From positions 124,001 to 188,000 of the forward strand of contig JANQJS010000049.1 in NCBI GenBank assembly GCA_028281535.1: a stretch of DNA of 64,000 nt, written 5' to 3'. The position numbers and the translations under genes were made by a program. Source of the DNA: Sedimentisphaerales bacterium (GTDB taxonomy: Bacteria; Planctomycetota; Phycisphaerae; Sedimentisphaerales; SM23-30). Shown here one piece after another: positions 59,407-63,443 of the stretch (the first letter of the stretch is position 1; each line of letters starts with the position of its first letter). Under the pieces are notes generated by a model. That model made no database searches. It had not been told where the DNA came from and worked only from the letters and a program-made list of their open reading frames with translations.

Positions 59407-59412
59407 ATGGTT

Positions 59413-60471
59413 ATGGATGAACAACGCGAAGATCAAGGATCGCAACCTCCACAGGCAGATATTGCTTCAGACCCAGTACGCAAAGACAATGTGCCCGTTT
59501 ATGTTGCTCCCAATTCAAGTCAGGAAGGAAAGTCAGGTAAATCATTTTTGACCGGGATTGTTAGGTATCTGGTGCTGTCTATTCTGGTTTTGTCATTAAT
59601 TGTGAATGTTTATTTGTTTGCTATTGTTGCTTCCGGGATGCAGGAAGAGGTTTATTTAGAAGGCGATGAGTTAAATAAGATTGCCCTGATCGATTTGCAG
59701 GGGACAATTAATATGGAAACGGCAGATGACATTCGCCGTCATCTTAAAAAAGCGGCCGCTGATGAAACCATCAAAGGTGTTATTTTGGTGGTGAATTGCC
59801 CCGGTGGTCAAGTGGCACCTTCCAATATGATTAATCATGCGATTCAAAATTTTCAAAAGGAGACAGGCAAAAAAGTCTATTCGTCGATTCAGCAATTAGG
59901 TGCAAGTGGTGCCTATTGGATCAGTGCTGCGGCAGATAAGATCTATGGACAAACCAATGCCATCATCGGTAGTATTGGTGTGATTTACATGAGTTTTGTT
60001 GCTGAAAAAACATTGAAAGAAAAATTGGGTGTTGAACCTGTTATTATTAAATCCAGTCAGGCACCTTTTAAAGATCGTGGCCCACCCTTTCGCCATCCAT
60101 CTGAAGAGGAACGTTTGAAGGTTCAACAGGAATTAGATACAGTTCATCAGCGTTTTGTAGATGTCATTGTTCAAGGACGTGGTATGGATGAAGAGCAAGT
60201 CCAGGCTTTGGCGGATGGTGATGTGCATGATGGGCCAACAGCTTTAGAGAAAAAATTGATTGATGAAGTCGGCTTTTTAGAGGATGCTATTGATGATATG
60301 GCTCAAGAGTTGAGCTTGAAGGATCCAAAGGTGATTCGTTATAGAAAACCAGGTGGGTTAGCCGATTTGCTGGCCGCAAAAGCACAAATTGAGAATCCAT
60401 TTGATATACGCTCACAAGTAGAGAAGTTTTTAACGGAGCCTAAAATCGTTGCTTTGTGGCCAAATTATTAA
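59413..60471 (+). CDS. sppA: Signal peptide peptidase SppA, short form
   Basis: Membrane-bound S49 serine protease that degrades leftover signal peptides. 352 residues; an N-terminal helix at about 49-74 anchors the periplasmic protease domain. The catalytic serine is S165 in 'QQLGASGAYWISAAADKIYG' and the general-base lysine is K220 in 'SSQAPFKDRGPPFRH', the Ser-Lys dyad of the short (67K-half) type. AGGAG at 59401-59405 lies 7 bases before the ATG at 59413; the ATG at 59407 is too close to it. It is followed after 18 bases by an LpxR-like gene, probably one operon. Confidence 0.93.
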   Translation: MDEQREDQGSQPPQADIASDPVRKDNVPVYVAPNSSQEGKSGKSFLTGIVRYLVLSILVLSLIVNVYLFAIVASGMQEEVYLEGDELNKIALIDLQGTINMETADDIRRHLKKAAADETIKGVILVVNCPGGQVAPSNMINHAIQNFQKETGKKVYSSIQQLGASGAYWISAAADKIYGQTNAIIGSIGVIYMSFVAEKTLKEKLGVEPVIIKSSQAPFKDRGPPFRHPSEEERLKVQQELDTVHQRFVDVIVQGRGMDEEQVQALADGDVHDGPTALEKKLIDEVGFLEDAIDDMAQELSLKDPKVIRYRKPGGLADLLAAKAQIENPFDIRSQVEKFLTEPKIVALWPNY

Positions 60472-60489
60472 TAGGATTGCGTTTTGTAT

Positions 60490-61491
60490 ATGTTTTTAAA
60501 GAGGGTTGCAAGAAAACAAAGATTTATTATATACCTATCCTGTTTTCTTTTGATGATATCATCATCTGTTGTCGCAGGTGATCCAAATGATTCGTTTGAA
60601 TTACACCTTTATTGGGAAAACGATGGATCAATTTTTAAGCCAAATGGACGCACGGATCGTCATTATACCAATGGCACAAAAATAGCCATATCGCATCGGC
60701 CCAGTCCTTCGCACTGGAGTTCAGATTTTCTTCAAAGTTTTCCAGGTAAACCCAGTGGGAAAATGCGTGCGGCGGTTGGGTATTTGATTGGGCAGAATAT
60801 TTATACACCTGATCATGTGGGGGTTCCGAAAAAAAGGGGGCCTAACGATCGAAAATTTGCTGGTTGGCTCTATGGAGGTATTTACCTTCAAAGAAGTGAC
60901 GAGGAGCTGCATGATCATTTGGAGTTAAATTTAGGGGTGATTGGGCCGTCGTCCCTAGCCGAACCTATGCAAAGAGCCATCCATGATACCTTTGATCTGA
61001 CGGACCCCAAAGGCTGGAGTGGTCAGTTGGATGATGAAGTCGCGTTTGACTTGATATATCAGCGTAAGTGGAAATTTTCTACGAAAGATTTTGCAGGATG
61101 CCAGGCACAATTCATCCCGCAAGTAGGTTGTATGCTGGGCACCGCGCATCGAAATTTAAATATTGATGCCACATTTCGATTTGGTTTGAATCTACCAGCT
61201 GATTTTGGGCCGGGTAGATTGCTCGATCCTGTTAGTTCAACGTATTTGCAAAGAGTGGCATCAACCTTTAGTACGTATGCATTTGTTCGTGTGGGAGGAA
61301 AGCTGGTTGAGCATAATCGTTTTTTAACTGGCCTCAGTCCAGAGCCTTTTATGGCAGAGCTGCAGGTTGGGATTGTTCTGGAGTATAAAAAATTGCAATT
61401 AGGCTACTCTCAAACCTTCCAAACACGCGAATATTCTCAGCAGAGCGGCAAAGATAGTTTTGGGGCATTAACGGCGTCTTGGATGTTTTAA
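60490..61491 (+). CDS. LpxR-family (DUF2219) outer-membrane lipid A deacylase-like protein
   Basis: A 333-residue exported beta-barrel protein. Signal peptide 'FIIYLSCFLLMISSSVVAG'. LpxR signatures: N-terminal 'LYWENDGSIF' and 'RTDRHYTNGTKIAIS' (the acidic/Asn and Thr positions around the active site), 'GYLIGQNIYTPDH', 'LELNLGVIGPSSLAEPMQRA' (His-x-Leu barrel strand with His just before) and 'YQRKWKF'. It ends with aromatic Phe ('SWMF'), as outer-membrane barrels do. LpxR removes 3'-acyl chains from lipid A in Salmonella; activity here is inferred. It supports a Gram-negative envelope with LPS-like lipid. It lies downstream of sppA. Confidence 0.85.
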   Translation: MFLKRVARKQRFIIYLSCFLLMISSSVVAGDPNDSFELHLYWENDGSIFKPNGRTDRHYTNGTKIAISHRPSPSHWSSDFLQSFPGKPSGKMRAAVGYLIGQNIYTPDHVGVPKKRGPNDRKFAGWLYGGIYLQRSDEELHDHLELNLGVIGPSSLAEPMQRAIHDTFDLTDPKGWSGQLDDEVAFDLIYQRKWKFSTKDFAGCQAQFIPQVGCMLGTAHRNLNIDATFRFGLNLPADFGPGRLLDPVSSTYLQRVASTFSTYAFVRVGGKLVEHNRFLTGLSPEPFMAELQVGIVLEYKKLQLGYSQTFQTREYSQQSGKDSFGALTASWMF

Positions 61492-61559
61492 TTAAATCTA
61501 TGCGTTGTAACTCATTGTATTTTAATGAGATAAAAATTGTTGTTCTGTCAAAAACAGTG

Positions 61560-61588
61560 TTGTTTCACATCTCTTAGGGCGTTATAAT
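61560..61588 (+). promoter_or_regulatory. ilvN operon promoter
   Basis: TTGTTT (61560-61565), a 17-base spacer and a perfect TATAAT (61583-61588). Predicted transcription start is about 61595, leaving a leader of roughly 330 bases before ilvN. Confidence 0.7.
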
Positions 61589-61594
61589 GACTCA

Positions 61595-61752
61595 ATTAGA
61601 AATTTGTAATGGGTTTTTGGGACCAGAGTGCATGCCTAATACGGCTCTTTATCTTAGGTCAATAGTTTAAATATTGAGATGGGATATCGACTCCAGGCAA
61701 TCGTAGGCTCTGGCGACCCGGAAAGTTTGGCAGAAACCTCAGAAGGAGCCCT
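61595..61752 (+). promoter_or_regulatory. Structured leader RNA upstream of ilvN
   Basis: The segment can fold into a multi-branched element. CCAGAG and GCCTA (61623-61638) pair with TAGGC and TCTGG (61704-61713), enclosing the hairpin TCAATA-GTTTAAA-TATTGA. The 3' strand of that stem, GGCTC (61706-61710), can instead pair with GAGCC, part of the AAGGAGCC ribosome-binding site at 61743-61750. Two exclusive folds would thus expose or hide the start of a small ORF. No match to TPP, SAM, FMN, cobalamin, glycine, lysine or T-box consensus was seen. Confidence 0.5.
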
Positions 61753-61920
61753 ATGAATTTGTCGTTCCCAAGCTGGGCCAGCGATAATCCGCATGGCCAG
61801 CCGCCCGCGACCCGATCAGGTGACCAGCGTTACCAGGATGATTTCGGGGATAAATTCCTATTCTGCAATGGCTTGTTCTCTGTTTGCGCTGCCAGTTCTC
61901 TAGCTAAATTTGGAGTTTGA
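61753..61920 (+). CDS. 55-codon leader ORF coupled to ilvN
   Basis: Begins MNLSFPSWASDNPHGQPP and ends with TGA six bases before the ilvN ATG. Its ribosome-binding site (AAGGAG, about 4-5 bases before the ATG) is among the better ones in this stretch, and the ilvN ribosome-binding site lies inside its last codons. It has few branched-chain codons, so classical Leu/Ile/Val attenuation is unlikely. The middle part is GC-rich compared with the genome and can fold (GGTGAC-CAGC-GTTACC inside CCCGA/TCGGG), so it might be structured RNA and not a peptide. No similarity recognised. Confidence 0.4.
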   Translation: MNLSFPSWASDNPHGQPPATRSGDQRYQDDFGDKFLFCNGLFSVCAASSLAKFGV

Positions 61921-61925
61921 AACGT

Positions 61926-62423
61926 ATGAAGCATACCATTAGTGTACTCGTGCAAAACTTGCCTGGTGTTCTTTCACAGATCGCTGGATTGTTCGCCGCA
62001 CGATCGTATAATATTGATTCTCTGGTCGTTGGACGCACGGAAGATCCTTCCTTGAGTCGCATGACAATTGTCGTCATTGGCGATGACAAAATTCTTGAGC
62101 AGGTTCGCAAGCAGCTTGGCAAATTATTGGCTGTTGTGAAGATTGTTGACTATGTGGGGGAAGATTTGGTCCAACGAGATTTGATGTTGATTAAGGTCTC
62201 GGCTCCGCCAGAAAAGCGTGCGGAGATCCAGGCCGTGATCGATATGTTTGACGCGAATGTAGTGGACTTTGGTCCTAAATTTGTTATGGTGGAGGTTGCA
62301 GGCCCCGAGGAAAAAATTGAAGCATTTATTGATACCTGCAGGCCTTATGGCATCAAAGATGTAGCGCGAACCGGCATGATTGCGATGCCTCGTCAGCGAC
62401 AAAAAAATAGAAACCAATCCTAA
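61926..62423 (+). CDS. ilvN: Acetolactate synthase small (regulatory) subunit
   Basis: Regulatory subunit that binds valine and stimulates acetolactate synthase, the first common step of branched-chain amino acid synthesis. 165 residues: ACT domain 'KHTISVLVQNLPGVLSQIAG' + 'LFAARSYNIDSLVVG', then 'MTIVVIGDDKILEQVRKQLG' and the C-terminal domain 'RDLMLIKVSAPPEKRAEIQA'. The open frame could start at TTG 61917, but GGAG lies 10 bases before the ATG at 61926. The catalytic subunit ilvB is not adjacent. ilvC follows after 6 bases, forming an ilvN-ilvC operon behind a long structured leader. Confidence 0.95.
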   Translation: MKHTISVLVQNLPGVLSQIAGLFAARSYNIDSLVVGRTEDPSLSRMTIVVIGDDKILEQVRKQLGKLLAVVKIVDYVGEDLVQRDLMLIKVSAPPEKRAEIQAVIDMFDANVVDFGPKFVMVEVAGPEEKIEAFIDTCRPYGIKDVARTGMIAMPRQRQKNRNQS

Positions 62424-62429
62424 GGAGTT

Positions 62430-63443
62430 ATGAAATTGAGTGAAGCTGTAATTTATTATGAAGACCAAGCACCTAAAACTGCTTTAGAAGGAAAAACCGT
62501 AGCTGTTGTTGGTTATGGTAGCCAGGGGCATGCACATGCACAAAACCTTCGTGATAGTGGTATCAATGTTATTATTGCACAGCGAGAAGGTAGTGCGAAT
62601 CACAAGTTGGCTGTCGAGCATGGCTTTGAACCCATGGCGATCGCTGATGCCGTTAAGCAAGCAGATTTGATTATTGTTACGTTGCCTGATGAAGTCATGG
62701 CCAAGATTTACAATGCTGAAATTGCACCAAATCTTGCTCCAGGTAAAACGTTAGGTTTTGCCCATGGATTTAATGTGCATTTTAAATTCATCGAAATTCC
62801 AGCCGAAAACAATGTGATCATGATTGCCCCAAAAGGCCCTGGCCATCTGGTTCGTAGTGAATATGTCAAGGGTGGTGGTGTGCCATGCTTGATTGCTGTA
62901 GAGCAAGATGGTGATGGTAACGCAAAGAATATTGGATTGGCCTGGGCCAATGGTATCGGCGGTGCTCGTGCCGGGATTATCGAAACGACATTTAAAGAAG
63001 AAACCGAAACCGATTTGTTCGGTGAACAAGTTGTTCTTTGTGGTGGTTTGTCAGCTTTAATCAAAGCTGGATACGAAACTTTATTGGAAGCTGGCTATCA
63101 ACCAGAGATTGCTTACTTCGAATGTATGCATGAAGTGAAGCTGATTGTTGATTTGATGTACGAAGGTGGCTTGAGCTACATGCGTTATAGTGTTTCCAAT
63201 ACGGCAGAATATGGTGATCTGTCTCGCGGGCCTCGTATTGTGACCGAGCAGACCAAAGCCGAAATGAAAAAGTGTCTTGATGAGATTTGCAGTGGCCAAT
63301 TCGCTAAAGAATGGATTGATGAATACAATAGTGGCTGCAAGAATTTCAATGCTCTTTACAAAATGGATCACGAAAGCCGTTTGGAAGTTGTCGGCCGTAA
63401 ATTACGAAAAATGATGACCTGGATTGATGAAAAAGAAGTCTAA
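62430..63443 (+). CDS. ilvC: Ketol-acid reductoisomerase, class I
   Basis: Isomerises and reduces acetolactate in valine and isoleucine synthesis. 337 residues, normal for class I. The Rossmann fold reads '[20 protein letters not shown]'. The cofactor-specificity loop is R-E-G-S-A-N, where class I enzymes usually have R-x-G-S-x-S. Mg2+ ligands lie in '[20 protein letters not shown]' and '[19 protein letters not shown]'. '[20 protein letters not shown]' is also typical. AAGGAG lies only 3 bases before the ATG at 62430; initiation at the TTG at 62436 is an alternative. Confidence 0.96.

What the first reader, a model, noticed from the sequence alone, without database searches (positions are those of the whole stretch)
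61560..61926. Long switch-like leader with coupled small ORF ahead of ilvN-ilvC
A strong promoter is followed by about 330 bases before ilvN. GGCTC at 61706 can pair either with the upstream arm (GCCTA/CCAGAG side) or with GAGCC of the small ORF's ribosome-binding site. The small ORF ends six bases before the ilvN ATG and contains its ribosome-binding site. This layout suggests translational control by alternative folding plus coupling. It matches no riboswitch consensus I know, and the ORF is poor in Leu/Ile/Val codons, so it is not a classical attenuator.
Basis: partly seen in the sequence, partly recalled or inferred. Interest (0 to 1): 0.65.

Follow-up and report, generated by a model that had tools for sequence, protein, structure and literature searches.

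The report
Lone ilvN leader with abutting mini-ORF
In one planctomycete genome the gene for the small subunit of a branched-chain amino-acid enzyme has lost its usual partner gene upstream and now follows a 330-base leader with a short abutting reading frame; the leader looks like simple ribosome hand-over, and nothing supports a folding RNA switch.

Summary
The anatomy is real: a promoter-like site (61560-61588), about 330 nt of leader, a 55-codon ORF with its own Shine-Dalgarno (61743-61920), and ilvN starting 5 nt after its stop. The proposed switch is not supported. The GGCTC-CCAGAG side helix has pairing probability about 0.997; the rival GGCTC-GAGCC pairing is at most 0.001 and 6-9 kcal/mol worse. 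A 5-base anti-SD complement appears in 52% of shuffles. No known RNA family matches. No homologue of leader, hairpin or small ORF was found in up to 397 relatives or elsewhere in its own genome. The window comes from a Sedimentisphaerales planctomycete, the only held member of its genus. In 91 of 110 ilvN loci examined, including 7 family members, ilvB lies upstream of ilvN. Here that ilvB is gone: lpxR is the neighbour, and the best large-subunit candidate is a divergent copy on another contig. The leader is therefore a lineage-specific new start for an ilvN-ilvC unit. The best mechanism is ordinary translational coupling: ribosomes on the small ORF open the predicted hairpin over the ilvN SD or re-initiate. 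This rests on anatomy and chance tests, not conservation. Covariation cannot be tested until a congener is sequenced.

The parts
60484..61491 (+). lpxR-like outer-membrane lipid A deacylase gene, occupying the place where relatives have ilvB
   Evidence: Pfam PF09982 E=2.8e-76; relatives have ilvB here
61560..61588 (+). sigma-70-like promoter candidate TTGTTT-N17-TATAAT
   Evidence: sequence; such a match occurs in 1.5% of shuffles of the gap; below the -35 threshold of the promoter scan
61617..61722 (+). predicted long imperfect hairpin, 36 pairs, containing CCAGAG(61623-61628)-CTCTGG(61708-61713)
   Evidence: -35.1 kcal/mol, z -2.4 to -2.6; pairing probability about 0.997; no homologue
61679..61756 (+). 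25-codon ORF without an SD; its TGA overlaps the small ORF's ATG (ATGA); probably not translated efficiently
   Evidence: codon score within the gene range but only 25 codons
61743..61748 (+). Shine-Dalgarno AAGGAG of the small ORF
   Evidence: sequence
61753..61920 (+). 55-codon small ORF abutting ilvN; no homologue, no family
   Evidence: ATG+SD+abutting layout in 0.2% of shuffles; codon score ambiguous
61898..61915 (+). predicted short hairpin that pairs the ilvN SD (GGAG 61912-61915) with 61898-61901
   Evidence: SD bases mostly unpaired with probability 0.02-0.34 in five folding contexts
61926..62423 (+). ilvN, acetolactate synthase small subunit
   Evidence: NF008864 E=8.3e-63, TIGR00119 E=9e-62; start aligns with relatives' MKRTISVLVQN
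62430..63443 (+). ilvC, ketol-acid reductoisomerase
   Evidence: PF07991, PF01450

Best explanation
This lineage lost the ilvB that normally precedes ilvN, so ilvN-ilvC became the head of its own transcription unit, read from a sigma-70-like promoter at 61560-61588. The 330-nt leader contains one stable hairpin and a lineage-specific 55-codon ORF that ends 5 nt before ilvN. The most likely mode of action is ordinary translational coupling: ribosomes initiate on the small ORF at its SD, their passage opens the local hairpin that covers the ilvN SD, and the same or another ribosome starts ilvN. Shown: the sequence anatomy, the missing ilvB, and the lack of detectable homologues. Inferred: transcription start, translation of the small ORF, coupling. 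No ligand-sensing step is needed or supported.
For: ilvB lies 8-280 nt upstream of ilvN in 91 of 110 loci, including 7 family members whose contig covers the site, but here lpxR and a 434-nt gap replace it and the best ilvB-type large subunit is a divergent copy elsewhere. ATG+SD+abutting ORF layout in 0.2% of shuffles. ilvN SD predicted paired in all contexts tested. One fold dominates. RNA unfolding by an upstream ORF and short-ORF coupling are documented mechanisms (PMC12548453, PMC5574718).
Against: The small ORF has no homologue, flat GC at the three codon positions (0.53/0.49/0.53 against 0.51/0.38/0.36 for window genes) and a codon score lower than 94% of true gene windows, although higher than 90% of off-frame windows. 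The long-context fold pairs the small ORF's SD as well. ilvN has an SD of its own and may not need coupling. No transcript or ribosome data exist.
Confidence: 0.5

Rival explanations
1. The leader is an unselected remnant of the rearrangement that removed ilvB: the small ORF is chance or decaying sequence, ilvN is translated from its own SD, and the long 5' region has no regulatory role.
For: No homologue of leader, hairpin or small ORF; ambiguous codon score and flat GC by position; whole-leader fold z only -0.7 to -1.0; G011, the other family member without ilvB before ilvN, has a different upstream region with no small ORF abutting ilvN.
Against: ATG+SD+abutting layout is rare in shuffles (0.2%); hairpin z about -2.5; no trace of ilvB or another recognisable gene in the six frames of the gap.
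Confidence: 0.33
2. A metabolite- or protein-responsive alternative fold gates the small ORF's SD and, through coupling, ilvN.
For: GGCTC can pair either way in principle; the two-way layout occurs in only 4% of shuffles; the hairpin is somewhat more stable than chance.
Against: SD-pairing state at most 0.001 probable and 6-9 kcal/mol worse; the upstream arm is made first and would capture GGCTC before the SD is transcribed (inference); no Rfam match even at E 10 apart from chance snoRNA hits; no homologue.
Confidence: 0.08
3. CsrA-type control as in E. coli iraD: CsrA binds GGA sites around the small ORF's SD, blocks its translation, and so lowers coupled ilvN.
For: The genome encodes CsrA (PF02599 E=1.6e-25); the iraD leader has the same plan of a short ORF coupled to a gene whose SD is sequestered (PMC5574718); a GGA lies in the small ORF's SD.
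Against: GGA count is 7 against 5.3 expected, so not enriched; no site was tested for loop placement or conservation.
Confidence: 0.05
4. Classical transcription attenuation by a BCAA-rich leader peptide.
For: Leader ORFs ahead of ilv operons are known in several lineages (PMC10272879).
Against: Small ORF has 4 Leu, 0 Ile, 2 Val of 55, no run; no terminator-like site between leader and ilvN.
Confidence: 0.01

Closest known systems
Short leader ORF translationally coupled to the downstream gene (E. coli iraD leader ORF, PMC5574718)
   Same: Short ORF with its own SD in a long 5' UTR, stop codon next to the downstream start, downstream SD predicted to be in a local hairpin; genome encodes CsrA
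   Different: Stop and start are 5 nt apart rather than overlapping; translation, coupling and CsrA binding not shown; no conservation
ilvB-II, ilvB and ilvB-OMG leader motifs (uORF attenuators, PMC10272879)
   Same: uORF ahead of AHAS-subunit genes
   Different: Those uORFs are rich in BCAA codons and the motifs recur in several genomes; here BCAA codons are scarce, nothing is conserved and the leader precedes ilvN, not ilvB
Standard Sedimentisphaerales ilvB-ilvN-ilvC operon
   Same: ilvN and ilvC in the same order and clearly related
   Different: ilvB lost from the head and replaced by lpxR plus a promoter-like site and leader

Membership tests
Known riboswitch or RNA leader family (Rfam 15) | covariance-model match above the gathering score | tested here: not met
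   0 matches in the window; only two chance snoRNA hits at E 5-8 in the leader
Riboswitch-like translational switch (new class) | two mutually exclusive folds of comparable stability, one hiding the SD | tested here: not met
   6.1 and 9.2 kcal/mol gap; SD pairing probability at most 0.001
Riboswitch-like translational switch (new class) | conserved, covarying structure in relatives | tested here: inconclusive
   no homologue in 59 genomes by covariance model or 397 by sequence; no congener available, so covariation itself could not be counted
Riboswitch-like translational switch (new class) | ligand-dependent structural change | not testable with these tools
   needs in-line probing
BCAA leader-peptide attenuator | short leader ORF with a run of Leu/Ile/Val codons | tested here: not met
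   4 L, 0 I, 2 V in 55 codons
BCAA leader-peptide attenuator | intrinsic terminator before the first structural gene | tested here: not met
   no terminator-like site in 61300-62100
Translationally coupled leader ORF | upstream ORF stop within a few nt of the downstream start | tested here: met
   stop 61918-61920, ATG 61926
Translationally coupled leader ORF | downstream SD occluded without upstream translation | tested here: inconclusive
   prediction only: SD mostly paired in five folding contexts; not compared with other genes' SDs and no probing data
Translationally coupled leader ORF | upstream ORF is translated | tested here: inconclusive
   SD and ATG present and layout rare in shuffles, but codon score ambiguous and no homologue
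Translationally coupled leader ORF | downstream expression depends on translating the upstream ORF | not testable with these tools
   needs reporter fusions

The most novel reading that the evidence does not exclude
After losing ilvB, this lineage evolved a genus-specific RNA leader in which the 36-pair hairpin and the small ORF together sense branched-chain amino-acid status and set the amount of regulatory subunit separately from a divergent large subunit encoded elsewhere.
Probability: 0.05. Interest if true: 0.55.

Novelty: new member of a known kind. Interest (0 to 1): 0.17.

Why it matters
If coupling is real it is one more example of a short leader ORF controlling a downstream gene, in a phylum where such leaders are little studied (own judgement). 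The more useful point is evolutionary: a regulatory subunit gene separated from its usual catalytic partner, with a divergent catalytic subunit encoded elsewhere, makes it possible to ask how a split AHAS is kept in balance.

Tried and rejected
Rfam at gathering and at E 10: nothing. Leader DNA against own genome, family, order and class: only a 35-nt, 89% match inside a gene that reads like a chemotaxis kinase in G052 (L032), E 2.3e-4 per genome but about 0.1 over 397 genomes. Small ORF against 13 and 392 genomes, Pfam, PHROGs, NCBIfam: nothing. Six-frame comparison of the gap with relatives' loci for an ilvB relic: nothing. nhmmer on the loci held: nothing below E 0.3. Covariance model R1 of the hairpin built from this one sequence, on 59 genomes and 54 sources: only itself; the best other match E 0.14. 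Sliding-window fold z-scores: none beyond -2.5 in the leader. Literature search for ilvN leaders in planctomycetes: none.

Full report
What was claimed.

What is there. All named sequences exist at the stated places to within a base. The promoter candidate is TTGTTT-N17-TATAAT (61560-61588); such a match occurs in 1.5% of shuffles of the gap, though its -35 is weak and the tool's scan did not list it. The small ORF 61753-61920 has an AAGGAG SD and stops 5 nt before the ilvN ATG (61926). An ATG-started ORF of at least 50 codons with an SD and ending this close to the next gene arises in 0.2% of dinucleotide shuffles; the criterion was set after seeing it, so this is a hint. Its codon score lies between true genes and off-frame sequence, and GC is flat over codon positions.

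The switch. In the ensembles of 61595-61770 and 61595-61960 the CCAGAG/CTCTGG helix has pairing probability 0.995-0.999 and the GGCTC/GAGCC pairing at most 0.001; forcing the latter costs 6.1 and 9.2 kcal/mol. The upstream helix is also complete before the SD is transcribed (inference from order). A 5-base complement to this SD arises in 52% of shuffles, the full two-way layout in 4%. The hairpin 61617-61722 is moderately more stable than shuffles (z -2.4 to -2.6), a level reached by fewer than 5% of pieces sampled across the window (5% quantile -2.2); its ends were chosen after folding.

Relatives. The window lies in a 4.4-Mb, 67-contig genome. By the titles of related records it belongs with Planctomycetota, Phycisphaerae, Sedimentisphaerales. 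It is the only held member of its genus; the nearest ilvN are 77% identical. In family relatives the order is ilvB-ilvN-ilvC. Among 110 ilvN loci, 91 have ilvB upstream on the same strand at 8-280 nt; the other 19 are mostly distant lineages, two loci cut off by contig ends, this genome, and G011 of the same family. In this genome lpxR (PF09982, E 2.8e-76) lies upstream with a 434-nt gap. The best candidate for an acetolactate synthase large subunit (TIGR00118, above its cut-off) is on another contig and at most 46% identical to any other hit in the family and phylum samples. The leader is therefore not an ancestral ilv leader. A misassembly between lpxR and ilvN cannot be fully excluded, but the contig is 228 kb long.

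Homology. No match to the leader in its own genome, its family or 397 class genomes apart from a chance-level 35-nt hit; no match to the small ORF in 392 phylum genomes; none with a covariance model of the hairpin. The model came from a single sequence and is weak, and other genera are too distant for unconstrained intergenic sequence to persist, so this argues against an old, widespread element but does not exclude a genus-specific one.

Mechanism. The ilvN SD (GGAG 61912-61915) is predicted to pair with 61898-61901 inside the small ORF in four of five contexts, and with another part of the small ORF in the fifth. A ribosome translating the small ORF would open it. RNA unfolding and re-initiation by an abutting upstream ORF are the two models for coupling in the literature (PMC12548453), and the E. 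coli iraD leader is a close functional analogue (PMC5574718). CsrA, the iraD regulator, is encoded here, but GGA motifs are not enriched (7 against 5.3 expected). Attenuation as in the ilvB-II and ilvB-OMG leaders (PMC10272879) is not supported by codon content or by any terminator-like site.

Verdict. Real anatomy, over-read mechanism: probably an ordinary lineage-specific leader with translational coupling, or a remnant of a gene rearrangement. Interest is low; the loss of ilvB and the divergent large subunit are the more unusual facts.

Noticed in passing
L166 / L154 960-2831 (G000:C2:137459-139327): The genome's best acetolactate synthase large subunit is a divergent 623-aa copy far from ilvN, at most 46% identical to any family or phylum hit, while the ilvB that relatives have next to ilvN is missing; looks like a non-orthologous replacement.
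   Followed up: partly
L158 2450-2724 (G011): A second family member also lacks ilvB before ilvN, with an unrelated upstream region; no ilvB was found in this 70% complete genome.
   Followed up: partly
window 61700-61899: GC 54-60% block in a 41% GC window, with GC and AT skew unlike its neighbours; origin unexplained.
   Followed up: partly
window 61679-61756: 25-codon ORF whose TGA overlaps the small ORF's ATG (ATGA), giving a chain of three abutting frames; it lacks an SD.
   Followed up: partly
window 61545-61557: Inverted repeat CTGTCAAAAACAG just upstream of the -35, a possible operator.
   Followed up: no
window 61511-61529: CTCATT/AATGAG inverted repeat after lpxR, a weak terminator-like stem that does not meet the scan's criteria.
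   Followed up: no
window 61796-61830 and L032: 35-nt, 89% match to a gene that reads like a chemotaxis kinase in G052, sharing PDQVTSV with an alternative frame of the leader; chance-level after multiple testing.
   Followed up: yes
window 60484-61491: LpxR-type lipid A deacylase homologue in a planctomycete, directly after an S49 signal-peptide-peptidase-like gene (59407-60471).
   Followed up: no
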